Part shown: piece by piece, positions 1 through 11,632 of the stretch
Layout: each line of letters begins with the position of its first letter
Numbering within the stretch: position 1 is the stretch's first letter
Assembly (NCBI GenBank): GCA_028293725.1
Contig: JAQGOE010000180.1
Span: forward strand, 1 to 11,632
DNA length: 11,632 nucleotides
Direction of reading: 5' to 3'
Origin: Gammaproteobacteria bacterium
GTDB taxonomy: Bacteria > Pseudomonadota > Gammaproteobacteria > Steroidobacterales > Steroidobacteraceae
Translations under genes and position numbers: made by a program
Notes under the pieces: generated by a model
Seen by the model: the letters and a program-made list of their open reading frames with translations, nothing else
Database searches by the model: none
What the model was told of the DNA's origin: nothing

Positions 1-3000
1 ACCTCTGCTGCGGGGGTAGCCGCTTTGCGGCGGAACAGCCGGCCCACGAGTATGAAGAATAGCGGGACGAAGAAGATGCCCAGTGCGGTTGCCGCGAGTG
101 TGCCGCCGACAATGCCCGTCCCGATCGCAATGCGACTGTTGGCGCCCGCGCCGCTGGACACTGCCAGCGGCAGTACACCGGCGACGAACGCAAGCGAAGT
201 CATCAGAATCGGTCGCAGCCGCAAGCGCGCGGCGTGGACCGCTGCCTCCAACAACTGCATTCCGCCGCGGTAGCGCTCTTCCGCAAATTCGATGATCAGA
301 ATCGCATTTTTGGCTGAAAGCCCGATGGTGGTCAGCAGCGCCACCTGGAAGTAGACGTTGTTGTCTAGGCCGCGCAGTGTCGCCGCCAGGACCGCCCCGA
401 TGACTCCCAGGGGAATGACCAGCAGCACCGACAGGGGCACCGACCAACTTTCATACAACGCTGCGAGGCACAGAAATACCACCAGAATGGAGAGGGAATA
501 AAGTTGGGTCGTCTGATTGCCGGCGAGGCGCTCCTGGTATGACAAGCCGCTGAAGGCATGACTGCTGCCGGCGGGGAGTTGATTCGCCAGGGCCTCGATC
601 TCCTGCATGGCGGTCCCGGAGCTCACCCCCGGCGCGGCCGAGCCCTGGATGGAATAAGAGCTGAGGCCGTCGAAGCGGGATAACGTCGACGGGCCATAGG
701 TCCAGTTCGTGTTTGCAAAGGCGGAAAATGGCGTCATGCTGCCACTGCTGCCGCGGACGTACCATTGACCGAGATCGTCGGGGGACGAGCGGAACGGCGC
801 ATCGCCTTGGACATACACCTTCTTGACGCGTGAGCGGTCGATGAAGTCGTTGACGTACTCACCGCCCCAGGCGACCGACAGCGTGGTGTTGATGTCGGAA
901 AGTGCGAGGCCCAGCGAGCTCGCTTTGGCCTGATCGACTTTGACTTTGAGCTGTGGCGTGTCCTCCAGAGTCCCGAGGCGCACAGCCGCCAACTTGGGGT
1001 CCTTGTTGGCCTGCGCCATCAAAGTGGCCCGCATCGACTCGAGCGCCCTGCGGCCCGTGCCAGGGTTGGCCAGCAGCTGGAACTCGAAGCCGCCGGTCTG
1101 GCCGAGACCTGCGATCGCAGGCGGGCTCAACGAGAAAATCTGCGCGTCCCGTATAGAAGCCAGTCTTTGCATGGCGCGCCGCGCGATCGCGTCCGAACGA
1201 TTGCGACTTCCCTTGCGCTGTGACCAGTCCTTCAACAAGACGAACCCGGCGCCGGCATTCTGACCACTGCCACTCAAGCCGAATCCCGCGGCGGTGAACA
1301 TCGTGGCGACGTTGTCTTTCTCCTCCTCTAGGAAATAACGCTCGATTTGCTTGCCAACTTCCACCGTGCGCGACAGCGAGGCACCGCTCGGCAGCGTGAA
1401 CTGCACGATGATCTCGCCCTGATCCTCATCGGGTAGAAAGCTGGTGGGCAGACGTATGAAAAGCACCGCCAGCGCGACGACAATGGCAGCGTAAGTCCAC
1501 ATCCAGCGCCGGGCGTGTTTGGCTACACTTGTGATGCCGCGCTCGTAGTGATCCGACAAACGATCGAACGTGCGATTGAACCAGCCGAGGAATCCCTGGC
1601 TGGTGGCATCGTGCGTCGCTGTCAGCAAAGAGGCGCACACGGCGGGGGTCAACGTCAGGGCTACTACCACGGACAAAGCCATGGAGGCGACAATCGTGAC
1701 GGAGAACTGCCGATAGATGACTCCAGTGGACCCACTGAAGAACGCCATGGGCAGAAACACGGCGGTGAGCGAGATTGCCACGCCGATGAGCGCGCCGGTG
1801 ATTTCCTGCATCGAGCGTAGCGTCGCTTCGCGTGGCGACAGGCGCTCCTCGCGCATGACACGCTCGACGTTCTCAACCACGACGATCGCATCGTCCACCA
1901 GGAGTCCGATCGACAATACCAACGCGAACATGGTCAGTGTGTTGATCGAATAGCCGAGCAGATTCAGAACACCGAAGGTGCCCAGCAGTACCACGGGCAC
2001 GGCAATGGCCGGAATCAGCGTGGCACGCCAACTCTGGAGGAAAGCGAACATGACGATCACGACGAGAGCGATCGCTTCGAAAAGCGTCTTGACGACTTCC
2101 TCGATCGAGATCTTGATGAACGGCGTGCTGTCCTTCGGATACAGGAACTCGTAGCCGGCAGGGAGTCCGTGCGTGAGGCTGGCGACAGTTGCGCGCACCC
2201 GCTCGGCGGTCGCGAGCGCGTTGGCTCCCGGCGTCAGTTTGATCGCAACTCCAGAGGCCGGATGACCGCCTCCACGGGTGACGTTGTCATAGTTCTCGCT
2301 ACCGAGCTCGACGCGTGCTACATCGCCCAGACGTACGGTCGCACCGGATGCATCGTGTTTGAGGATGATGTCGCGGAATTCCTCGCGACTGGTGAATTTC
2401 GACTGCGCCGTCACGGTAGCATTGATCTGCTGATCGGCCACTGCAGGCTGCCCGCCTATGTTACCCGCCGAGATCTGCACGTTCTGCGCTACGATTGCCG
2501 AGGTGACATCGGAGGGCATCAGGCTGTACGCGGCGAGCTTCGCCGGGTCGAGCCAGATGCGCATGGCGTATTGGGCGCCGAACACCTGGACGCCTCCCAC
2601 TCCGCCAATGCGGGCGATCGGGTCCTGGATGTTGCTGACGAGATAGTCGGCAAGGTCATTCGCCGTCGCATGATCGGTTGCATCCGCCAGGGCGACGATC
2701 ATCAGGAAGTCGTTCTGCGACTTGGTGACCGTGACGCCCTGCTGCTGAACGGCGGTCGGCAACCGCGTGAGCGCCTGTTGCACTTTGTTCTGGACTTGTA
2801 TCTGCGCGGTGTCCGGATTGGTTCCCTGTTGGAAGGTGACCTGGATGCTCGAGCCGTGCGAGGGGTCACTCGTCGAGGAGAAGTAGAGCAGGCCGTCGAG
2901 CCCGGTGAGTTGCTCCTCCAGAATCTGGGTGACGCTGTTTTCGACGGTCTCGGCCGATGCGCCGGGGTAGCTGGCCGAGATGTTGACCGTCGGCGGCGCA

Positions 3001-3116
3001 ATGTCAGGGTATTGCTCGACGGGCAGGCTGGTGATCGACAATGCGCCGGCGAGCATGATCGCGATCGCGATCACCCATGCAAAAATCGGCCGGTTGACAA
3101 AGAATCGCGCCAGCAT
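1..3116 (-). CDS. RND (AcrB/MexB-type, HAE1) efflux transporter, C-terminus cut by the window edge
   Basis: This is the inner-membrane, proton-driven pump of a tripartite drug/solvent efflux system. It starts MLARFFVNRPIFAWVIAIAI, the classic first transmembrane segment, and reads open for 1038 codons to the window edge. AcrB-type proteins are about 1045 residues, so only the last few are missing. The proton-relay residues are present: the Asp pair 408-409 in GLLVDDAIVVVENVERVM (TM4), Lys936 in TTIGLSAKNAILIIEF (TM10), and the RLRPILMTSLAF segment near residue 970. The switch/Gly-rich loop FGLSGSGQNAG lies near residue 612. The ATG is 2 bases beyond the adaptor stop with no clear ribosome-binding site, which suggests translational coupling. 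Substrate cannot be read from the sequence. An outer-membrane channel gene could lie further left. The family assignment is secure. Confidence 0.97.
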   Translation of the reverse strand, partial: MLARFFVNRPIFAWVIAIAIMLAGALSITSLPVEQYPDIAPPTVNISASYPGASAETVENSVTQILEEQLTGLDGLLYFSSTSDPSHGSSIQVTFQQGTNPDTAQIQVQNKVQQALTRLPTAVQQQGVTVTKSQNDFLMIVALADATDHATANDLADYLVSNIQDPIARIGGVGGVQVFGAQYAMRIWLDPAKLAAYSLMPSDVTSAIVAQNVQISAGNIGGQPAVADQQINATVTAQSKFTSREEFRDIILKHDASGATVRLGDVARVELGSENYDNVTRGGGHPASGVAIKLTPGANALATAERVRATVASLTHGLPAGYEFLYPKDSTPFIKISIEEVVKTLFEAIALVVIVMFAFLQSWRATLIPAIAVPVVLLGTFGVLNLLGYSINTLTMFALVLSIGLLVDDAIVVVENVERVMREERLSPREATLRSMQEITGALIGVAISLTAVFLPMAFFSGSTGVIYRQFSVTIVASMALSVVVALTLTPAVCASLLTATHDATSQGFLGWFNRTFDRLSDHYERGITSVAKHARRWMWTYAAIVVALAVLFIRLPTSFLPDEDQGEIIVQFTLPSGASLSRTVEVGKQIERYFLEEEKDNVATMFTAAGFGLSGSGQNAGAGFVLLKDWSQRKGSRNRSDAIARRAMQRLASIRDAQIFSLSPPAIAGLGQTGGFEFQLLANPGTGRRALESMRATLMAQANKDPKLAAVRLGTLEDTPQLKVKVDQAKASSLGLALSDINTTLSVAWGGEYVNDFIDRSRVKKVYVQGDAPFRSSPDDLGQWYVRGSSGSMTPFSAFANTNWTYGPSTLSRFDGLSSYSIQGSAAPGVSSGTAMQEIEALANQLPAGSSHAFSGLSYQERLAGNQTTQLYSLSILVVFLCLAALYESWSVPLSVLLVIPLGVIGAVLAATLRGLDNNVYFQVALLTTIGLSAKNAILIIEFAEERYRGGMQLLEAAVHAARLRLRPILMTSLAFVAGVLPLAVSSGAGANSRIAIGTGIVGGTLAATALGIFFVPLFFILVGRLFRRKAATPAAE

Positions 3117-3118
3117 GG

Positions 3119-4339
3119 CTAAAACCGCTGTGGGCCGCGATCCGAGGCTGACAGGCTGGAGTTGACATTGGCGGCCTCGGCCGCCCGGACATGGGACGGG
3201 GTCCCATCCGTCGCGAGCGCCACCACCCGCACGGCATCTCCGGCGTGGACTCTGCCGAGCCCCTCGACGATGAGCTGATCGCCCGCCTTCAGTCCGGAGC
3301 TGATCAGCCACTGGTTGCCGACGGCACGCTCGGTAACGACGGTGCGCCGCTCAACGCGGTTACCGGGGCCGATGACCAGAGCAAACGCATCGCCGTTGGG
3401 GTCACGGCCAATTCCTTGCTGGGGTGCCAGCAGCGCGGCAGGCTGCACTGCATCCTCGATGACGGCGCGAACATACATGCCGGGCAGCAGCAGTCCCTGC
3501 GGGTTGGGAAACCGCGCGCGCAGCGTCACCGAGCCGGTGGCCTGATCCACCGCCACTTCCTGAAATTGCAAAATGCCCGCCTGCGCATACTGAGAGCCAT
3601 CCTCCAGCTTCAGTTGCACGCGTCGATTCCCGGGCGTGGTGCCGTGTGTCCCCAGCAACTCCCGCAAGCGCAGCAGCTGCGCGCTCGATTGTGTCAGGTC
3701 CACATAGATCGGATCGAGCGCGCGCAGGGTCGCAAGCGCCGTGTCCTGATTCGCTGTCACGAGCGCGCCGGCGGTCACGTTCGATTTGCCGACCTTGCCT
3801 GCAATCGGCGCGCGGATCTGGGTGTAGTCCAGGTTGATTCGCGCGCTCTTCAGGGCAGCTTTCTTGAGCGCCACGGTCGCCAAGCTCTGCTCGTAAGCGG
3901 CGTGCGCATCGTCCGCGTCCTGCTTCGAGACGCCCTGAATCTGCATTAACTCGCCGTAGCGTTGGTCCTTGAAGCGGGCGGCCGCAACCGCGGCCTCCGC
4001 ATTGGCCAGGTCGGCGTTAGCCTGGTCATAGGCGGCTTCATAGGCGGCCGCGTCGATCTGGTAGAGCACCTGGCCGGCTTTCACCAGGGCGCCTTCCTCG
4101 AAGAGCCGCGCCTTCAGGATGCCGGAGACCTGCGGCCGCACATCGGCCATCGAGGAAGCCGTGGTGCGGCCGGGAAGCTCCGACTGCAGCGCGATGGAAC
4201 GCGCCTGCAGGGTGACCACACCCACCTCCGCCATGGGCGGGAATGGAGGTCCCTTGTTCTTGGCGCACCCCCCGAGGCATACCGCGACGGCGATGAGCGC
4301 GTAGAGGGCGTTGCAGCGGGAACCGAGGCGGGCGGTCAT
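3119..4339 (-). CDS. RND efflux periplasmic adaptor (membrane fusion) lipoprotein, AcrA/MexA type
   Basis: This protein links the RND pump to an outer-membrane channel. From the chosen ATG it is 406 residues, close to AcrA (397) and MexA (383). Residues 1-24 form a lipoprotein signal: a short basic start, hydrophobic ALYALIAVAV, then lipobox LGGC with Cys25 as the lipidated residue. A lipoyl/barrel-sandwich half (VSGILKARLFEEGALVKAGQ, about 71-90) is followed by a short helical hairpin (about 97-170). The second lipoyl half is RAPIAGKVG (177-185), and the beta-barrel and membrane-proximal domains follow. Longer starts exist at 4378 and 4372 (ATG) and 4414 (TTG). I chose 4339 because the likely promoter and operator lie over the longer starts and because this start gives a normal signal peptide. 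A weakness is that no Shine-Dalgarno stands out before 4339, while 4378 has a GAGG about 10 bases upstream. The gene is followed directly by the pump gene. Confidence 0.93.
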   Translation of the reverse strand: MTARLGSRCNALYALIAVAVCLGGCAKNKGPPFPPMAEVGVVTLQARSIALQSELPGRTTASSMADVRPQVSGILKARLFEEGALVKAGQVLYQIDAAAYEAAYDQANADLANAEAAVAAARFKDQRYGELMQIQGVSKQDADDAHAAYEQSLATVALKKAALKSARINLDYTQIRAPIAGKVGKSNVTAGALVTANQDTALATLRALDPIYVDLTQSSAQLLRLRELLGTHGTTPGNRRVQLKLEDGSQYAQAGILQFQEVAVDQATGSVTLRARFPNPQGLLLPGMYVRAVIEDAVQPAALLAPQQGIGRDPNGDAFALVIGPGNRVERRTVVTERAVGNQWLISSGLKAGDQLIVEGLGRVHAGDAVRVVALATDGTPSHVRAAEAANVNSSLSASDRGPQRF

Positions 4340-4354
4340 GAGCGTAAAAAGATG

Positions 4355-4384
4355 TTGAGAGTGATCGTTCATTCTCATTATGAT
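4355..4384 (+). promoter_or_regulatory. Probable sigma70-type promoter of the TetR-family regulator
   Basis: The -35 TTGAGA (4355-4360, 5 of 6 matches to TTGACA) and the -10 TATGAT (4379-4384, 5 of 6 matches to TATAAT) are separated by 18 bp. The predicted start near 4391 would leave a leader of about 27 nt before the GTG at 4418. The palindrome at 4356-4377 occupies the spacer, so a bound repressor would block polymerase, implying autorepression. Confidence 0.6.
4356..4377. promoter_or_regulatory. Probable TetR-family operator, 22-bp near-perfect palindrome
   Basis: An 11-bp arm reading TGAGAGTGATC is followed by its imperfect mirror GTTCATTCTCA. Of 22 positions, 18 are symmetric, with centre CG at 4366/4367, i.e. 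consensus half-site TGAGArTGAwC. It lies in the short gap between the divergent regulator and adaptor genes. It fills the spacer of the regulator promoter and abuts the -10 of the adaptor promoter. TetR-type repressors of RND pumps typically bind such palindromes beside the promoter. Binding by the neighbouring regulator is inferred. Confidence 0.75.
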
Positions 4385-4405
4385 GCGGCCTCGAGAGGGG
4401 TGCAA
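4377..4405 (-). promoter_or_regulatory. Probable sigma70-type promoter of the adaptor-pump operon
   Basis: On the minus strand the -35 TTGCAC (4400-4405; only the TTG matches well) and the -10 CATAAT (4377-4382; 5 of 6) are separated by exactly 17 bp. Transcription would start around 4370, inside the palindrome, leaving about 30 nt of leader before the ATG at 4339. The -10 overlaps the -10 of the divergent regulator promoter, and the -35 overlaps the regulator's ribosome-binding site. Confidence 0.5.
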
Positions 4406-4417
4406 GGGGCTCAACAG

Positions 4418-5029
4418 GTGAGTGCGTCACAGTCAGTAAAGGTCAGGCGACCGCCGAAGAATCTGCGGGATCAAATCCGCCGCGATGAGATCGTGAACGC
4501 GGCGCGCACTTGCGTGGTGCGCCACGGTTTTCATGCGGCAAGCATGGGCGAGATTGCCGCGGCTGCGCGGATGAGCGTCGGGCAGATCTATCGATACTTT
4601 CCCAACAAGGAAGCCATCATCCACGCCATTGTCGAGCGCATCGTGGCGCAGCGTGTGCTGAAAATGGTTGCAACGGTCGGCGCCACCGACATGGCTACCA
4701 CGCTCGCCGAGCCGCTGGCGGCCGGTCTGAGCGATGTGCAGCGCGATGACCAGATCCTGATGCTCGAGGTGATCGCCGAAGCCACGCGCAATCCCGCGGT
4801 GGCGAAGATTGTCCAACAGGCCAGCAGGCGCCTGCACGATCAGGCGGTGCCGATTCTGATGAAGGAATATCCCTCGCTCAGCCGGGCCGAAGTGTCGGCG
4901 CGTGTTGAGTTGTTGGCCGTGTTGTTCGAGGGAACCCTGTTTCGCCGGATCGCAGGACACCGCAAAGACACCGTGCCGATTGCTCTGTACCGTGATGTCA
5001 TCGAAAGAGTGCTGCCGACGACTCGCTGA
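4418..5029 (+). CDS. TetR/AcrR-family transcriptional regulator, probable repressor of the adjacent RND pump
   Basis: This is a 203-residue DNA-binding protein of standard TetR length. The N-terminal helix-turn-helix covers about residues 20-65: RRDEIVNAARTCVVRHGF, then SMGEIAAAARMSVGQIYRYF (about 42-61), followed by PNKEAI, the family signature. The C-terminal two thirds are helical and divergent, as expected for a ligand-binding and dimerisation domain. I chose the GTG start at 4418 because AAGGGG (4404-4409) lies 8 bases upstream and because it places the helix-turn-helix at the usual distance from the N-terminus. The reading frame is open much further upstream but there runs antisense to the adaptor gene. 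The divergent arrangement and the shared palindrome point to autorepression and repression of the pump, relieved by a pump substrate. The ligand is unknown. Confidence 0.93.
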   Translation: MSASQSVKVRRPPKNLRDQIRRDEIVNAARTCVVRHGFHAASMGEIAAAARMSVGQIYRYFPNKEAIIHAIVERIVAQRVLKMVATVGATDMATTLAEPLAAGLSDVQRDDQILMLEVIAEATRNPAVAKIVQQASRRLHDQAVPILMKEYPSLSRAEVSARVELLAVLFEGTLFRRIAGHRKDTVPIALYRDVIERVLPTTR

Positions 5030-5385: not shown

Positions 5386-6207
5386 ATGATCGTGTCAGGT
5401 CACCCGGGCGCCCGGGGCAAGTTGCGGGAGATAACGGACGAGTATCTCGGGAGCCTGTTGCGGCACGCTCCCGCTTGCCCGGCCCTGGCGCCCGGGTGCC
5501 GGGCGACGGTCAACGCCGTCGCCACGGGCGTGACGAGTTTGCCCCCGATCGACGACTTTCCGGCTTTGCAGATCTTTACAGATCCGCAGCGGGGTGAAGT
5601 TGCCGTAGCCGGTGTCGCCAAGATCGCCGGGGCGTTGCATCCATTCGCGTTGCGGCTGCGCGTGGAGAGCGAGCGCATTCTCGAGGCGGAAGCGCTCCTG
5701 AGCAACACATCCAAGGGGCACTTCGCGGATGTCGAACAACTCTTGAAGCCCGACGTGTTGTATGACGCCCCCGTCGCGCTCGAGCGCGCGAGCGACCGCG
5801 CAGGGCTCACGGCGGCGGCAGACAGCTATTGGACGGGTCTGCAGGAAAGCGACGGCAGTATTCCCAAGTTCGCCTATCGCTGCGATCGCTTCGACAACGG
5901 CAAGAAGATCACCAACAATCTGTCGATTCTGCTGTCACCCGAAGCTGCGGTGCTCACTTGCGCCAGCGGTCTCAATGCGACCCGCCCGGCGCGTCCGGTC
6001 GCGCGTAATCGCCGCTTCCCGGTGTTGGATGTGAGTCTGGGCGTCGTCGTGAGCTTCGTCCTGGTGGACTTCAAGCCGAACCCGCAGATCAAGCTGCCCG
6101 GCATGACGCACTACATGATGGGCCTGTTCAAGATCGTGGACGGCGAGATCCGCAGTCTCGATGAGATCACGGAGAAGTTGCCGTTCGGCTCACCCTCAGG
6201 CTGGTGA
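5386..6207 (+). CDS. Unknown-function protein, paralogue 1, resembling the DUF8021/NTF2-like group
   Basis: A 273-residue protein, mostly collinear with the 272-residue product of 9029-9847. Shared blocks include GHFADVEQLLKPD, LYDAPV, AADSYW, SDGSIP, the two Cys contexts YRCD and TCAS, RRFPVLDV (RRYPVLDV in the other copy), YMMG, and the closing SGW. The C-terminal pattern (Arg-Arg-aromatic, V-hydrophobic-D, a second beta-rich block, then a DGEIRSLDEI-like turn) recalls the DUF8021 proteins of fungi and bacteria, which have an NTF2-like flavour. That is from memory, not a search. No signal peptide or membrane segment is visible. The ATG at 5386 was chosen because it gives the paralogue's length. 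No good ribosome-binding site supports it, and GTG at 5392 is also possible. The next gene is a flavin monooxygenase on the same strand. A small-molecule-binding or enzymatic role in the same pathway is inference. Confidence 0.8.
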   Translation: MIVSGHPGARGKLREITDEYLGSLLRHAPACPALAPGCRATVNAVATGVTSLPPIDDFPALQIFTDPQRGEVAVAGVAKIAGALHPFALRLRVESERILEAEALLSNTSKGHFADVEQLLKPDVLYDAPVALERASDRAGLTAAADSYWTGLQESDGSIPKFAYRCDRFDNGKKITNNLSILLSPEAAVLTCASGLNATRPARPVARNRRFPVLDVSLGVVVSFVLVDFKPNPQIKLPGMTHYMMGLFKIVDGEIRSLDEITEKLPFGSPSGW

Positions 6208-6219
6208 TTCCCTTGGGAA

Positions 6220-6266
6220 ATAAAACGACATCTTTTCTCGTATATTGACTTTTTACGTCGTTTTAT
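6220..6266. promoter_or_regulatory. AT-rich inverted repeat upstream of the flavin monooxygenase gene, possible operator
   Basis: A perfect 10-bp inverted repeat: ATAAAACGAC at 6220-6229 and GTCGTTTTAT at 6257-6266, with 27 bases between. Read outward-in, the two half-sites continue as AT and GT, giving the 12-base element ATAAAACGACrT twice in opposite orientation, with matching ends 37 bp apart. It lies in the 106-base gap between paralogue 1 and the monooxygenase gene, an AT-rich island in GC-rich DNA. TTGACT (6245-6250) and TATATT (6241-6246) are also there, but neither has a well-spaced partner. The layout suits an activator or repressor site. The binding protein is unknown. Confidence 0.45.
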
Positions 6267-6313
6267 AGGATGCTGATCGCAGTCAAATCCAGCCATTAAG
6301 AGGGGAAAGCGCC

Positions 6314-7417
6314 ATGCACGTCGGGTATGCGACAGGGTTTCAGCACCAGAGCGGACCGGAAGTGAATGACTCGACGTTCATCCACGAAGACCTGGAGATG
6401 GCGTTGCTCGCGGAGTCGCTCGGGTTCGAATCCGTCTGGGTGACCGAGCATCACTTTTCCAACTACTCGCTTTCCCCCGCGCCGCTGCAGACGCTCGCCT
6501 GGTTTGCGGGCAAGGTGCGCAAGGCATTCCTCGGAACCCAGGTCGTGGTGTTGCCGTGGAATGATCCGGTGCGCGTCGCGGAGCAGGCGCTGTGGTTGGA
6601 CACCGTCACGAACGGGCGCGTGGTGTTGGGATTCGGCCGCGGTCTGGGCAAGATGGAATACGAGGGGATGCGGGTCGACATCAACCAGACACGGCAACTG
6701 TTCCGCGAGTACGCCGAGTTGATCATCGGCGCGCTGGAGACCGGTGTGATGGAAGGTGGCGCACTCACCAGGCAGCCGCGCCGCGAGCTGCGTCCGCGGC
6801 CGCAACGCTCGTTCCAAGGCAGAATCTTCGGCTCCGCCGGCTCGCCGGAATCCGTGCGTACGGTGGCCGAGCTCGGCATGGGCGTGCTCATCATCAATCC
6901 CGAGCCACGGCCCGCGCTGGGGGTGGATTTTGAAACCTACAAGTCGGTGTGGGCCGAGAAGCACCCACAGCGCGCGCTACCGAGGCCGCTGCTGTCGGGG
7001 ACGATCTTCGTGGACGAAAGCGGCGAGCGCGCTCGGGAAATGTCGGTGCGATACCATCGAGTCAACTTCAAGGCGGCGGTGGTGAACTACGGTATGGCGG
7101 AAGCGGATTTCGGCACCGCGAAGGGCAACGAGTACTACCAGAAGATGAAGATCGCACCGGAGAAGGTCGACGAGATGGCGGACCGGATGGGAACCATCAT
7201 GCCCGCGGGGACTCCGACAGAGGTGCTCACACAGCTCGAGACCATCAACAAAAATATCGGCCTGCAGGGCTTCTTCCCGCACTTTCACTTTGGCGCCATG
7301 CCTCGCGAGGAAGCCGTCAGAAATCTGCGTCTGTTCGCCGAGAAGTGCCTGCCGGAGCTCAAGAGCTGGCCGGCGGAGGCCTCGTTCGGCTTGCCGCGGC
7401 TGGAGTCGGCCGCCTGA
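6314..7417 (+). CDS. LLM-class (luciferase-like) flavin-dependent monooxygenase
   Basis: A 367-residue protein of the bacterial luciferase/F420-type TIM-barrel family, which uses reduced flavin and oxygen supplied with help from a reductase. Visible family features are the early barrel strand and helix with LAESLGFESVWVTEHHF (about 32-48), the LPWNDPVRVAEQALWLDTVTNGRVVLGFGRG block (80-110) typical of the family, GSAGSPESV (about 173-181), and a C-terminal segment ending in an FFPHFHFG strand and LRLFAEKCLPEL helix. AAGAGGGG (6298-6305) sits 8 bases before the ATG, a strong ribosome-binding site. Family members include luciferases, alkane/sulfonate monooxygenases and type II Baeyer-Villiger monooxygenases. 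No visible residue fixes which of these this is. No flavin reductase is in the window. The neighbourhood of alcohol dehydrogenases and an esterase favours a Baeyer-Villiger or hydroxylation role (inference). Confidence 0.9.
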   Translation: MHVGYATGFQHQSGPEVNDSTFIHEDLEMALLAESLGFESVWVTEHHFSNYSLSPAPLQTLAWFAGKVRKAFLGTQVVVLPWNDPVRVAEQALWLDTVTNGRVVLGFGRGLGKMEYEGMRVDINQTRQLFREYAELIIGALETGVMEGGALTRQPRRELRPRPQRSFQGRIFGSAGSPESVRTVAELGMGVLIINPEPRPALGVDFETYKSVWAEKHPQRALPRPLLSGTIFVDESGERAREMSVRYHRVNFKAAVVNYGMAEADFGTAKGNEYYQKMKIAPEKVDEMADRMGTIMPAGTPTEVLTQLETINKNIGLQGFFPHFHFGAMPREEAVRNLRLFAEKCLPELKSWPAEASFGLPRLESAA

Positions 7418-7470
7418 AGGGGAGGGGAGCTCGCTGCTGCGCGTGAGGCTGTTGGATAGCGGCCGCCGGC

Positions 7471-8089
7471 TCAGGCCGCGCGGCCGAAGCGCCGTGAGAC
7501 TTCCGCGAGGCGGCGATACTTGACGTCCTGTGCCGCTGCCGCGCCGGAGGCGTCGCGGCGCGCGATGGCATCGGCCCCCTTGCGCGTCTCGGTCAGGTAG
7601 ACCTGATCGAGCTGCGCGAAGTCCGCGATGCCGACCATCTCCCAGGACGAAAACGCCTTGGTGCTGAGCAGGATGAGATCGATGAGAGGATTGTCGAGGG
7701 TGCGGGTGAGGCTCTCCTCGACTTCAAACATGGCGCATCTGACTTGCGTCGTCGGCAAGCTGGCAAATTTGCTCAGCGCCGCGTGGATGCGTGCAACATC
7801 CGCAGGCTCGGCGAGCGCGGCGGCCCTTGCTGCCGCCTCCATGCTGGTGGCGTGAAACAGCTTCATGGCGGCACCGGCGCTCAGCCCGTGGGCTGCGAAA
7901 TGACAACTGATCAGGCGGCACACCGAGGCCGGTCGCGGCACCTGGCTGACTACCCCGTTGCCGCGGCCGCGCAGCGAGGTCTGCCTCGATGCCGTTGGAC
8001 ACCTGGCAACCCAGCTTCAGCTCGCTGGGCAGCTCACCCACCAGGGAGGAAAAGAAGAGGGCGGGGCTGAATTCGGACGAAATTCTCAC
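7471..8089 (-). pseudogene. Broken GntR-family (FadR/FCD-type) regulator lacking its helix-turn-helix
   Basis: The upstream part starts at a GTG (8087-8089) that overlaps the esterase stop as GTGA, and it encodes ELKLGCQVSNGIEADLAAR. This resembles the segment that precedes the winged helix-turn-helix in many GntR proteins. The reading then changes frame around 7957-7972, in the GC-rich GCGCGGCCGCGG. The second frame begins with RGRGNGVVSQVPRPASV, like the wing (RRGRGNGLVV) that follows the helix-turn-helix. It continues into an FCD-like ligand domain (ARIHAALSKFASL; FEVEESLTRTLDNPLIDLILL) to the stop at 7471. The roughly 40 residues of recognition helices that should lie between are absent. 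I infer an internal deletion of about 120 bases with a frameshift. The second frame has a stop just upstream, so one continuous protein is not made. A ligand-domain-only product could start at the GTG at 7939-7941. A sequencing or assembly error is possible. Confidence 0.65.
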
Positions 8090-9024
8090 GCCAAGCAGCC
8101 GCGCAGAAAGGCGTCGATGCGTTGGTTGGCCACCGCCGCCAGGGGGTGAGGCGTTTCGATGAACGCATGGTCCGCACCCGGCCAGATGGCGATTTCCGCC
8201 CGATTGCCGCTGCTCAGCCAGCGGCAATACATGAACAAGGAGTCGTCGAGAAAGGCATCCAGCGTGCCTACGGTGAAGAGCGCGGGCGGCAGCTCATGCA
8301 GGCTCCCATATAAAGAGGAGATATCCGGGTGTCGCATCTGCTGCGGGTCTGGACAGTAGGTAGCGGCGATGCGCGCAATATCGGACGCTTTCAACACCCC
8401 GCTGTCCGCCTTGCGCTGGCTGGGGGTCATCGAGCTGTCGTAGACGCCGAAGGAGAGATTCGCGCCGCGAAATCCGCGGTAACCCTGTCGGTCGCGCATG
8501 CGCGTCAGTGTTGGCACGGCGAGCATCGCGCCGGCCGACTCGCCTCCAATGAGCAATGTGTCGGTGCCAAACTCGGCTTTGGCGTTGCGCGCCAGCCATA
8601 GCGCAACGGCTTCGCAGTCATCCCAGGCCGCCGGAAACGGATGCTCCGGGGCAAGCCGGTATTCGACGCTGACACAAGTCACGCCGACTTCGCGGGCAAT
8701 CCGTTCCAACATCGGGTCCTGGCCGGCCGCCGATCCGAGGATCATCCCGCCGCCATGCAGGTGCAGGTACACCGCGCGTGGTGACTCCGCGGGAACGATG
8801 TGCACCCCGATGTTGCCATCGATGGTGCGGTCGATGGCGCGTGCGGATCGCGGCATTGGCGGCATGAAGCCGCCGCCACGCGCCACTTCCACGCCGATAT
8901 CCCAGATCCCGGGCCTTCCCTGCATCATGCGGGCCGCACGTAGGTTGAATTCGGCTGTCTCGGGCGTTACGGCGGCGGCCCGGAACACATCGCCGAAAGG
9001 ATGCAGTGTCGTTGTTTGAGTCAT
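8086..9024 (-). CDS. Alpha/beta hydrolase, hormone-sensitive-lipase (family IV) esterase
   Basis: A 312-residue carboxylic ester hydrolase. The oxyanion-hole motif HGGG is at residues 90-93. The nucleophile elbow GESAG is at 161-165 with Ser163. The acid is probably Asp256 in GTLDAFLD, and the base His286 in GADHAF. VEYRLAPEHPFPAAWDD (120-136) is the typical family block. Length is normal and there is no signal peptide, so it is probably cytoplasmic. The start is ATG at 9022-9024, 4 bases after the stop of the preceding gene, with AGGT a few bases upstream. The frame is open further upstream, but that is antisense-free overlap with the preceding gene and lacks homology. The stop overlaps the start of the decayed regulator. 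In this operon it could hydrolyse an ester or lactone made by the monooxygenase, or deacylate a substrate (inference). Confidence 0.93.
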   Translation of the reverse strand: MTQTTTLHPFGDVFRAAAVTPETAEFNLRAARMMQGRPGIWDIGVEVARGGGFMPPMPRSARAIDRTIDGNIGVHIVPAESPRAVYLHLHGGGMILGSAAGQDPMLERIAREVGVTCVSVEYRLAPEHPFPAAWDDCEAVALWLARNAKAEFGTDTLLIGGESAGAMLAVPTLTRMRDRQGYRGFRGANLSFGVYDSSMTPSQRKADSGVLKASDIARIAATYCPDPQQMRHPDISSLYGSLHELPPALFTVGTLDAFLDDSLFMYCRWLSSGNRAEIAIWPGADHAFIETPHPLAAVANQRIDAFLRGCLA

Positions 9025-9028
9025 ATAC

Positions 9029-9847
9029 CTACCAGCCCGAGAGCGCCCCCAGGGGCAGAATCTCCCGGATCTCATCGACACTGCGCAGCTCGCAGTCGAC
9101 GACTTTGAACACACCCATCATGTAGAAGGAGCCCGCGTCCGGACGAGGGCGGTCGGGAATGGGGTGAAAATCGATCACCACGAAGCTGGCGGCCACCCCG
9201 CGCTCCACATCGAGCACCGGATAGCGACGCTCGCGGGCCCGCGGGCGCGCCGCTTTGGTGTGGTCGAGTGCCGAGGCGCAGGTGTGCACCGTGGCGTCCG
9301 GAGACAACAACGTTCTCAGGGTGTTGGTGGTCTTGGCGCCGTTGTCATATTTGTCGCAGCGATAGTGAAACCGCGGAATGGAGCCGTCGCTGCGCTCCAG
9401 ACCCTCCCAGTAGCTGTCGGCCGCCGCACGCAATTGCTCGAGACTGGCGGCACGGGCTGGTGGAACCGGCGCATCGTACAGGATGTCAGGTTTGAGCAGT
9501 TGCTCGACGTCGGCAAAGTGCCCCTTGGGATCGGTGCTGACGACCACCTCCGACTCGATGACGTGGCCGCCCTGGATGCGCAGGCGCACGGCGAATGGCC
9601 ATGGCCGGCTGTCTCGATAAGCAACCCCCATCATGACGAGCTGCCGTGCTTGCGGGTCGACGAAGAACTGCTCGCCCGCGAAGCGCTCGATGCTACGCCA
9701 GCAGCCTTCGCCCACCGGGATTTCCCGGCCGTTTTCCGTTGCGCGTAACGCAGGGTGCAGCGGCGCGCCCGCCGGGTCATGACGCACGATCGCCGCCAGA
9801 TACCGTCGGCCGACCTCGATCAACTCCTCACGTGTGTCGTCATTCAT
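9029..9847 (-). CDS. Unknown-function protein, paralogue 2, resembling the DUF8021/NTF2-like group
   Basis: A 272-residue protein clearly homologous to the product of 5386-6207, most strongly in the last 170 residues. Shared text includes KGHFADVEQLLKPD, LYDAPV, AADSYW, SDGSIP, LLSP, TCAS, the PVLDV block, YMMG and the closing SGW. Conserved Cys residues (YRCD, TCAS), several Asp residues and aromatic positions could form a binding or active site, but I recognise no catalytic signature. The ATG at 9845-9847 overlaps the upstream dehydrogenase gene by 8 bases and has an AGGGG-like element just before it, so translation is probably coupled. The start gives the same length as the copy. The frame is open further upstream (to 9901), but that lies within the dehydrogenase. 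The product is probably soluble and cytoplasmic. Placement between a dehydrogenase and an esterase suggests a role in the same pathway. Confidence 0.85.
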   Translation of the reverse strand: MNDDTREELIEVGRRYLAAIVRHDPAGAPLHPALRATENGREIPVGEGCWRSIERFAGEQFFVDPQARQLVMMGVAYRDSRPWPFAVRLRIQGGHVIESEVVVSTDPKGHFADVEQLLKPDILYDAPVPPARAASLEQLRAAADSYWEGLERSDGSIPRFHYRCDKYDNGAKTTNTLRTLLSPDATVHTCASALDHTKAARPRARERRYPVLDVERGVAASFVVIDFHPIPDRPRPDAGSFYMMGVFKVVDCELRSVDEIREILPLGALSGW

Positions 9848-10748
9848 ACCGCCCCTGATCCATCGCCTCGATGGCGCGCTTGGCCGCAGCCGTCTCCGCA
9901 CGGCGCGCCGCTTCGAGCATCTGCCGGCCGGGATCTATGACCTGGCCCTGCGGGAAGCTCGCGAGGATTTCCGTAAAGTGCTCCGCGAGCTCGTCACGGA
10001 ATTCGCCGTGGCTGAGGATGTAGGCTGTGTTGTGGAGGATGCCCTGTACCACTATTTCCCCGATCTCGTACGGATCCATGCCGGCCTCTGGCGGCGGTGT
10101 GAGGGGGCCCGGCGGGTGTCCAACGGGCGCGGGTCGCGCGAACCGCGGCTGCCGGTTTTCTTCGGACTGCAGCATCCGGCTGCGTGTCAATCCCGGATAC
10201 AACACCGAGACGCCGATGCCACGGGAAGCGAGGGTCAGGCGCAATGAATCGCTCAAGCCGCGCACGCCATACTTGGATGCCGCGTAGATGAAGTTGTTGG
10301 CCGTTGGGATCAGCCCCGCCATCGAGGCCGTGGTGAGGATATGGCCACCTTCGCCGTGGGCCAGCAGGTGCGGCAGAAAACTCATGATGCCGTTGATGGT
10401 GCCGCCGAGGTTCACGGCCAGGACCCAGTCCCAGTCGGCATAGCTCATCTGCTCCACCGGCGGACAGGTTCCCACGCCGGCGTTGTTGACGAGGATATGA
10501 GCTTTGCCAAAGCGCCGCACCGTCGCCTCGGCGGCCGCCGCCATGGCGTTGCGATCGCATACATCGACCTGCAGATACTCGACGGTGTCGGTTGCGCCGA
10601 GCAACTCGCGAGCTTCTGCCAGGTAATCGGCACGCAGATCGGCGACCACGACGCGCGCTCCGTGCGCCAACAGGCGGCGCACGATGCCGAGGCCAATGCC
10701 ACTGGCACCGCCGGTAACGAAAGCAACCTTGTTCGTAATGACGCGCAT
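9840..10748 (-). CDS. Classical short-chain dehydrogenase/reductase (SDR), second in operon
   Basis: A 302-residue NAD(P)-dependent oxidoreductase. The nucleotide-binding motif TGGASGIG is at residues 12-19. Asp37 at the end of the second beta strand (VVVADLRAD) favours NAD over NADP. NNAG is at 88-91. The catalytic Ser142, Tyr155 and Lys159 (YAASK) are all present. PGLTRS (185-190) follows the usual PG motif. The protein is about 50 residues longer than the family's minimal length. The extra residues are a Pro-rich insert (PPGPLTPPPEAG, about 214-225) in the substrate-lid region and an Ala/Arg-rich helical tail. The start ATG at 10746-10748 is preceded by GAGAG at good spacing. The stop overlaps the next gene. 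It probably oxidises a secondary alcohol or reduces a ketone. The substrate is unknown. Confidence 0.94.
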   Translation of the reverse strand: MRVITNKVAFVTGGASGIGLGIVRRLLAHGARVVVADLRADYLAEARELLGATDTVEYLQVDVCDRNAMAAAAEATVRRFGKAHILVNNAGVGTCPPVEQMSYADWDWVLAVNLGGTINGIMSFLPHLLAHGEGGHILTTASMAGLIPTANNFIYAASKYGVRGLSDSLRLTLASRGIGVSVLYPGLTRSRMLQSEENRQPRFARPAPVGHPPGPLTPPPEAGMDPYEIGEIVVQGILHNTAYILSHGEFRDELAEHFTEILASFPQGQVIDPGRQMLEAARRAETAAAKRAIEAMDQGRYE

Positions 10749-10775: not shown

Positions 10776-11612
10776 TCATGATCGATATGCCGCTGCCAGC
10801 AACGCGGCGTGGCGCGCTTGTAGGATGGGCTTCACCAACGCGTCCGTGAACACGTAAGGTTGATTCTCGGCCATTGCATCGGCAAGGCGCTCTCCTACGT
10901 CGAGCGGGTCGGCGCCCAGTGCCAGGATCGAGCGCGCCAACTCAGCCATCGCGCGCTGTTGTTCGGGGCTCGCACTGAGACCGGAATCGGCGAGTTCGGG
11001 CGGGCGCATCGAGCCGTGATCGTGGATGTTGGTATTGACGGCGGCGGGGCACAGCAGCGTGACCCCGATATGCTCGGCCTCGAGGTCCGTGCGCAAGCAC
11101 TCCATGAGCGCCGTCACGCCGAACTTCGCGCTGCTGTAGATACCCCCATCGTCTGCTACGACGAGCCCGCCCATGGACGACGTGGCGCAGACGTGCCCGC
11201 CGTCCCGGTTGGCGCGCAGGACCGGCAGGAAGGTCTCGAGACCCAGGGTGACCCCACGAAGATTGACGCCCATCAACCAGGCCCAGTCGTGCGGCCGCGC
11301 CTCCAGCACCTTGCCGAGCAGGCCGATGCCGGCGTTCAGACACAACAGGTGCAGCGTGCCGAAGCGCCGGGTCACCTCTGCATGCACCCGCGTCCAATCC
11401 CGTGGAGAGCTGACGTCAAGATGCTCCATCCGTACCCGGTCGCCGTAGGCAGCGAGGGACGTGACGGCCTGCTCCATGTGGTCCGGGCGGATATCCCCGA
11501 TCACGACCGTGGCACCCCTGCGTAGCAGGGCGCGACTGATCCCGAGGCCGATGCCGCTGGCCCCGCCGGTCACCAGGGCGACACGCCCGGTGAGAACCGA
11601 AGGTGAGCTCAT
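10776..11612 (-). CDS. Classical short-chain dehydrogenase/reductase (SDR), first gene of the operon
   Basis: A 278-residue NAD(P)-dependent oxidoreductase. TGGASGIG is at 15-22. Asp40 (VVIGDIRPD) suggests NAD preference. The usual NNAG is replaced by LNAG (92-95), a minor change. The catalytic Ser146, Tyr159 and Lys163 (YSSAK) are present. It shares family architecture and a long C-terminal part with the SDR at 9840-10748, but the two differ widely outside the motifs, so they are not a recent duplication. The start ATG at 11610-11612 fits, because LTGRVALVTGG follows at the normal distance and no alternative Met is near. Only 27 bases separate it from the next gene. As first gene it probably carries the operon promoter just upstream, mostly outside the window. 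Confidence 0.94.
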   Translation of the reverse strand: MSSPSVLTGRVALVTGGASGIGLGISRALLRRGATVVIGDIRPDHMEQAVTSLAAYGDRVRMEHLDVSSPRDWTRVHAEVTRRFGTLHLLCLNAGIGLLGKVLEARPHDWAWLMGVNLRGVTLGLETFLPVLRANRDGGHVCATSSMGGLVVADDGGIYSSAKFGVTALMECLRTDLEAEHIGVTLLCPAAVNTNIHDHGSMRPPELADSGLSASPEQQRAMAELARSILALGADPLDVGERLADAMAENQPYVFTDALVKPILQARHAALLAAAYRS

Positions 11613-11621: not shown

Positions 11622-11632
11622 GTGGCCACCGG

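What the first reader, a model, noticed from the sequence alone, without database searches (positions are those of the whole stretch)
5386..9847. Two paralogues of an uncharacterised protein, one in each arm of a catabolic cassette
Products of 5386-6207 and 9029-9847 are nearly equal in length and share long identical runs, including GHFADVEQLLKPD, conserved Cys contexts and a closing SGW. One sits beside a flavin monooxygenase, the other between a dehydrogenase and an esterase, in opposite transcription units. Retention of two diverged copies in one pathway suggests two related substrates or a heteromeric partner pair. The nearest family I can recall is DUF8021/NTF2-like, which has no clear established function that I know. 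This is the best candidate for undescribed biology here.
Basis: partly seen in the sequence, partly recalled or inferred. Interest (0 to 1): 0.7.

Follow-up and report, generated by a model that had tools for sequence, protein, structure and literature searches.

The report
Paired double-NTF2 proteins in catabolic islands
Two related proteins of unknown function in this stretch of bacterial DNA each hold two linked copies of a pocket-forming fold, and in other bacteria the same two types recur near each other among enzymes that look built to break down plant phenolic compounds, which gives the unknown family a testable role.

Summary
The products of 5386-6207 (+) and 9029-9847 (-) are 52% identical over 267 residues (E 2e-89); both carry GHFADVEQLLKPD and a closing SGW. 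The predicted fold (pLDDT 93.7) is two NTF2/ketosteroid-isomerase-like domains in one chain.

The pair is no local accident. Of 14 other genomes found with this branch, 9 have both types (8 of 9 on one contig, 5-37 kb apart), 5 only the P0001 type (B), 0 only the P0002 type (A). All 9 A copies lie next to an HsaA-like flavin hydroxylase; all 14 B copies lie on the strand of, and within 4.6 kb of, a different one; 13 of 14 B copies lie within 6 kb of a lignostilbene-dioxygenase homologue. The islands, in Pseudomonadota and Actinomycetota, look like two-module pathways for plant aromatic compounds.

Most likely each DUF8021 protein is a cofactor-free lyase or isomerase acting on its partner hydroxylase's product: inferred, no substrate shown. 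An obligate A-B heteromer is disfavoured. The window holds neither hydroxylase nor the dioxygenase.

The parts
5386..6207 (+). DUF8021, type B (P0001, 273 aa), tandem NTF2-like domains
   Evidence: PF26061; fold; groups with the B copies; nearest B_G1215
9029..9847 (-). DUF8021, type A (P0002, 272 aa)
   Evidence: fold; nearest to A copies
6314..7417 (+). luciferase-like (LLM) flavin monooxygenase
   Evidence: Pfam Bac_luciferase E 6e-49; 74-76% identical to LLMs of islands in L001, L002, L003
8086..9024 (-). alpha/beta-hydrolase (HSL-type) esterase; ORF runs to 9114, start at 9024 inferred from the ATG 4 nt after the DUF8021 stop
   Evidence: Abhydrolase_3 E 2e-45; sequence; about 60% identical to island esterases
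9840..10748 (-). short-chain dehydrogenase, overlaps DUF8021-A start by 8 nt
   Evidence: adh_short E 1e-48; about 65% identical to island SDRs
10776..11612 (-). second short-chain dehydrogenase, first gene of the minus-strand unit within the window
   Evidence: adh_short E 5e-40; about 50% identical to island SDRs
7471..7977 (-). C-terminal remnant of a tandem GntR/FCD-type regulator that is longer in other islands (ORF 7471-7941)
   Evidence: weak FCD match E 0.0017; tblastn: only the last ~110-160 residues of 424-475-aa regulators C25/C1 align
6220..6266 (.). perfect 10-nt inverted repeat between DUF8021-B and LLM, possible operator
   Evidence: a 7-nt core version was not found in 88 other loci

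Best explanation
The two proteins are anciently diverged members (types A and B) of a branch of DUF8021 without an evident signal peptide, whose chain holds two NTF2-like domains. In the island type to which the window belongs, each serves its own catabolic module and works beside its own HsaA-like (group D, FMNH2-dependent) aromatic hydroxylase. Module B also has a lignostilbene-dioxygenase homologue, an SDR and, in several genomes, ring-cleavage-type genes. Module A also has an LLM monooxygenase, SDRs and an esterase. Proposed mechanism (inferred): the hydroxylase oxidises a phenolic ring of a plant-derived aromatic dimer or aryl-alkyl compound, and the DUF8021 protein, by acid-base catalysis in an NTF2 pocket without a cofactor, resolves the dearomatised or quinone-methide-like product by elimination or isomerisation. 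This would resemble what the NTF2 enzymes LdpA and PcfL do before a lignostilbene dioxygenase. Shown: homology, predicted fold, recurrence, gene coupling in relatives, purifying selection. Inferred: that it is an enzyme, the reaction class, the substrate.
Against: No substrate, activity or catalytic residue is shown. In the window neither DUF8021 has a hydroxylase beside it and no dioxygenase is present; the record ends at 11632, so absence cannot be told from truncation. Sequence profiles find no solved enzyme relative, so any tie to LdpA is by fold and context only, and LdpA itself was not compared. The N half is less conserved than the C half (A-B identity 34% against 58%), so one half may be only structural. 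The wider family (e.g. P0124, P0189) has signal-peptide-like N-termini (by eye), and of two distant loci looked at, one (L018) has an HsaA-like gene 5.8 kb away on the other strand and one (L019) none within its 41 kb, so coupling to hydroxylases is not general for DUF8021. The hydroxylase tree carries a long-branch warning. Type A as one clade with P0002 is not rejected but not supported either (p-AU 0.386).
Confidence: 0.45

Rival explanations
1. DUF8021 is an epoxide hydrolase or cyclase of the limonene-epoxide-hydrolase/Lsd19 type that opens an epoxide made by the LLM or HsaA-like monooxygenase.
For: Two-domain Lsd19 is the best Foldseek match for the P0001 model, E 2.8e-6; limonene epoxide hydrolase variants and an M. 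tuberculosis LEH-like protein are also in the list. An Arg and two Glu are conserved at 90% or more in the N half (R90, E100, E102), loosely like an acid-Arg-acid centre (recalled).
Against: The whole-chain Lsd19 alignment has rmsd 16.5 and TM about 0.35, so the domain arrangement differs. Group D hydroxylases normally hydroxylate phenols rather than epoxidise (recalled). KSI and SalBIII match the C half equally well.
Confidence: 0.2
2. DUF8021 is a non-catalytic partner (subunit, chaperone or product carrier) of the adjacent hydroxylase.
For: Very tight pairing: in L002 and L003 the ORF coordinates of HsaA_A and DUF8021-A overlap by 1 nt; pairing holds in 9 of 9 A copies and, within two mapped genes, 13 of 14 B copies.
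Against: A strongly conserved polar set is kept in both halves and in distant members, as expected of a catalyst. In the window DUF8021-A is coupled to an SDR and an esterase instead. In G001, G002 and G1215 other genes intervene on the B side.
Confidence: 0.2
3. A and B form one obligate heteromer.
For: Both in one locus in the window; both types in 9 of 14 genomes, and no genome with A alone among those 14. The 5 genomes with B alone are multi-contig assemblies, so a missed A copy is possible.
Against: B alone in 5 of 14 genomes (G004, G006, G009, G011, and G012, whose copy lies on a 4.5-kb contig). A and B lie in separate modules with their own hydroxylases and regulators. A single chain already holds two NTF2 domains.
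Confidence: 0.08
4. Chance duplication kept by drift, with no shared pathway.
For: The branch is rare: 2 of 397, 2 of 394, 1 of 398 and 3 of 299 genomes in four family samples, centre genomes included.
Against: Rare, yet two full copies in 7 of those 8 genomes; both types occur in Pseudomonadota and in Actinomycetota; purifying selection on both.
Confidence: 0.03

Closest known systems
PF26061 / DUF8021 (Pfam)
   Same: Both window proteins carry the precomputed assignment; 28-31% identity of P0002 to the distant Novosphingobium group P0123-P0129.
   Different: The window branch lacks the signal-peptide-like N-terminus seen in P0124 and P0189 and is tied to HsaA-like hydroxylases. No paper in the library names the family.
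LdpA / PcfL, NTF2-superfamily gamma-formaldehyde lyases of lignin-dimer catabolism
   Same: NTF2-superfamily proteins working with lignostilbene dioxygenases (passages of PMC12997858); the B module likewise places an NTF2-like protein with an LSD homologue.
   Different: Sequence relation to LdpA was not tested. DUF8021 has two NTF2 domains, and its usual neighbour is a flavin hydroxylase.
Lsd19 (two-domain polyether epoxide hydrolase, 3RGA/4RZM)
   Same: Two NTF2-like domains in one chain; best Foldseek match for the P0001 model.
   Different: Whole-chain rmsd about 16.5; 11-12% identity; biosynthetic context.
HsaA/HsaB and p-hydroxyphenylacetate hydroxylase C2 systems
   Same: The neighbouring hydroxylases score 213 and 173 bits against the NCBIfam HsaA model, and a flavin reductase is present in module A of some genomes.
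   Different: Far below HsaA's curated cut-off of 450; HsaA systems are not known to need a DUF8021 protein (recalled).
ifc isoflavone cluster of Variovorax
   Same: Plant-phenolic catabolic cluster starting with a flavin hydroxylase (passages of PMC11069340).
   Different: IfcA is a group A FMO; the terms NTF2, luciferase, carotenoid and acyl-CoA dehydrogenase have 0 occurrences in its main text.

Membership tests
DUF8021 (PF26061) | Match to the PF26061 profile | tested here: met
   Precomputed PF26061.1 listed for P0001 and P0002. The local library does not hold the model, which explains no hit; not re-scored here.
NTF2-like superfamily | Cone-shaped alpha+beta NTF2/KSI fold | tested here: met
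LdpA/PcfL deformylases | Sequence homology to LdpA/PcfL | not tested
   No LdpA sequence was fetched; the profile search of PDB chains gave only 5nr6 at E 0.65.
LdpA/PcfL deformylases | Gene context with a lignostilbene dioxygenase | tested here: met
   13 of 14 B copies have an LSD homologue within 6 kb; not met in the window itself.
LdpA/PcfL deformylases | Formaldehyde release with stilbene formation | not testable with these tools
   Needs enzyme assay.
Lsd19 / LEH epoxide hydrolases | Asp-Arg-Asp type catalytic triad in the pocket | tested here: inconclusive
   R90, E100, E102 conserved, but coordinates could not be inspected, and the identification with the triad is recalled.
Lignostilbene dioxygenase (island neighbour C4) | Homology to LSD | tested here: met
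   L007 copy 490 bits to NF053778, below its curated cut-off of 800; L009 copy best solved match 5v2d, a dioxygenase, E 1.4e-129 (that 5v2d is the P. brassicacearum LSD is recalled).

The most novel reading that the evidence does not exclude
An undescribed two-module bacterial pathway for plant aromatic dimers, passed between phyla, in which a new enzyme type, a cytosolic double-NTF2 protein coupled to a group D hydroxylase, performs a cofactor-free bond-breaking or rearomatising step; module B is the core and module A, always found with B in the 14 genomes seen, feeds it or handles the second ring.
Probability: 0.3. Interest if true: 0.75.

Novelty: new variant of a known kind. Interest (0 to 1): 0.5.

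Why it matters
It turns a domain of unknown function into a testable enzyme candidate with named partner genes, and points to an island, not found in print under the terms searched in the open-licence library, that may break down lignin-, lignan- or stilbene-type compounds in plant-associated and soil bacteria. That bears on the open question of which routes bacteria use for plant aromatic dimers.

Tried and rejected
Rejected: that hydroxylases A and B are sister paralogues co-duplicated with DUF8021; HsaA_A groups with other S. scabiei hydroxylases (97/96) away from HsaA_B, with a long-branch warning. Looked for and not found: positions that separate A-like (104) from B-like (13) rows at 85% in both; rows were sorted by identity alone, which put some, such as P0105, with A although the tree groups them with B-context copies. 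Seven distant rows were set aside before that sorting. Corrected on re-check: I first took L018's operon to have no hydroxylase; one search finds an HsaA-like gene there (8057-9163, other strand, annotated as acyl-CoA dehydrogenase family), and none in L019.

Led nowhere: PDB by sequence (one chain at E 0.65); the inverted repeat of 6220-6266 in the 88 other loci; sigma-70 and terminator scans, at or below chance level; plasmid collection, only distant or partial matches; papers for DUF8021, PF26061 and SLG_25140 (0 each), for S. scabies, suberin, lignostilbene and aromatic degradation (0 with 3 of 4 terms), and for flavin monooxygenase, HsaA and stilbene terms (1 review listed, not read). The 16 papers were seen as a listing of 15; of them I saw passages of PMC12997858 and PMC12607616. 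No row named LdpA is among the 50 rows shown in each fold list, which says nothing about relation. The ifc and pinoresinol papers (passages only) show no matching gene set for the terms asked. A-type proteins in other organisms (e.g. P0058, P0072, P0083, P0084, P0087) could not be checked for a B partner.

Full report
Observation. Both ORFs are present at the stated coordinates and are 52% identical over 267 residues, E 2e-89. The shared run GHFADVEQLLKPD is exact and both end in SGW. The + copy is followed by a luciferase-like monooxygenase; the - copy lies between an SDR and an alpha/beta-hydrolase. On the minus strand the genes are packed: the SDR stop overlaps the DUF8021 start by 8 nt, and the esterase ATG at 9024 is 4 nt after the DUF8021 stop (sequence).

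Family. The local Pfam and NCBIfam scans gave nothing above a curated cut-off for either protein. The homologue search lists PF26061 (DUF8021) for both window proteins and for the 120 rows shown of 144. The local library lacks that model, so I rely on the precomputed label. No paper in the library contains DUF8021 or PF26061.

Distribution. One genome-contig scan gave 17 loci. A whole-genome search of the 12 genomes behind them found two full copies in 7 of 12, both on one contig in 6 of these 7 (G001 has them on two contigs). Family samples at E 1e-60 gave hits in 2 of 397, 2 of 394, 1 of 398 and 3 of 299 genomes, centre genomes included. Four hits were not the centre genome (G001, G008, G1215, G1378); G001 and G008 were already known, and all four carry two copies. 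Genus samples (1 of 149, 1 of 5, 2 of 20, 2 of 75) added no new genome. In sum, of 14 genomes 9 have both types, 5 only B, 0 only A. The five with B alone are multi-contig assemblies.

Two types. In a tree of 22 branch members with 5 distant members as outgroup (near-identical copies of G006 and G010 left out) the 13 B rows, P0001 included, are one side of a branch (91/99, not starred). Holding the A rows plus P0002 together is not rejected (p-AU 0.386). The larger tree agrees for both window proteins but leaves the base unresolved. dN/dS by NG86 is about 0.06-0.20 in 5 of 5 pairs tested, two of type A and three of type B.

Islands. Neighbour clusters, Pfam and NCBIfam labels and maps show two modules. 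Module A: LLM (9 of 9 within 12 kb), IclR-type regulator (9 of 9), esterase (8 of 9), SDRs, an HsaA-like flavin hydroxylase, DUF8021A, and in several genomes a flavin reductase, a tandem GntR regulator and a TonB receptor. Module B: a lignostilbene-dioxygenase homologue (13 of 14 within 6 kb), an SDR (13 of 14 within 6 kb), a small SnoaL-like protein (13 of 14 within 9.5 kb), an MFS transporter and a tandem GntR regulator (12 of 14 each), DUF8021B, a second HsaA-like hydroxylase, and in several genomes a two-domain glyoxalase/extradiol-type protein, an FAA hydrolase and an aldehyde dehydrogenase. DUF8021A is next to its hydroxylase and on the same strand in 9 of 9. DUF8021B is on the same strand as its hydroxylase in 14 of 14: adjacent in 11, one mapped gene between in 2, and 4.5 kb away in G1215. 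The hydroxylases of the two modules are not sisters in the tree (long-branch warning).

The window. It carries DUF8021B, LLM, esterase, DUF8021A and two SDRs, plus a remnant of the tandem GntR regulator, but neither hydroxylase nor the dioxygenase. B lies beside the LLM here, an A-module gene elsewhere. The record ends at 11632, so what lies beyond is unknown.

Mechanism. NTF2-fold proteins catalyse isomerisation, dehydration and epoxide opening (recalled) and, in LdpA and PcfL, deformylation that yields a stilbene for a lignostilbene dioxygenase (passages of PMC12997858). With its constant hydroxylase neighbour in relatives, a DUF8021 protein most likely acts without a cofactor on that hydroxylase's product. 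SDR, LLM and esterase in module A would fit ketone formation, Baeyer-Villiger oxidation and ester hydrolysis (recalled chemistry, not tested); LSD and the ring-cleavage-type genes in module B would fit dimer cleavage and ring degradation. Substrate and reaction remain unproven. The wider family has signal-peptide-like N-termini (by eye), including SLG_25140 of Sphingobium sp. SYK-6. Of the two distant loci looked at, L018 has an HsaA-like gene 5.8 kb from the DUF8021 gene on the other strand and L019 has none, so the claim of coupling is limited to the window's branch.

Verdict. A real, recurrent pair and a good lead; the enzyme claim is inference. Interest 0.5.

Noticed in passing
window 6220-6266: Perfect 10-nt inverted repeat ATAAAACGAC / GTCGTTTTAT, 27 nt apart, between DUF8021-B and the LLM gene; a possible operator. 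A 7-nt core of it was not seen in 88 other loci.
   Followed up: partly
window 7471-7977 (-): Only the C-terminal part of a tandem GntR/FCD regulator remains, while other islands hold a longer form.
   Followed up: partly
window 3-5029: A probable RND efflux pair on the minus strand (plasmid matches named RND permease) and a TetR-type gene (TetR_N) border the cassette; the pump clusters C87 and C106 have no partner among the 17 loci.
   Followed up: no
L011 11704-12849; L042 1351-1638: S. scabiei and S. stelliscabiei carry further DUF8021 pieces that match only part of the model; one lies just after a further HsaA_A-like hydroxylase.
   Followed up: no
L018 14905-15822: A distant DUF8021 protein in Novosphingobium capsulatum sits with a TPP-requiring enzyme, a 2-dehydropantoate 2-reductase, an MFS transporter and a TonB receptor, with an HsaA-like gene 5.8 kb away: perhaps another catabolic setting.
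   Followed up: partly
P0189 (SLG_25140): The lignin model strain Sphingobium sp. SYK-6 encodes an exported-looking DUF8021 protein; no paper in the library names it.
   Followed up: partly
L014 756-2041: In the Robbsia andropogonis draft the HsaA_B hydroxylase reads in two pieces.
   Followed up: no
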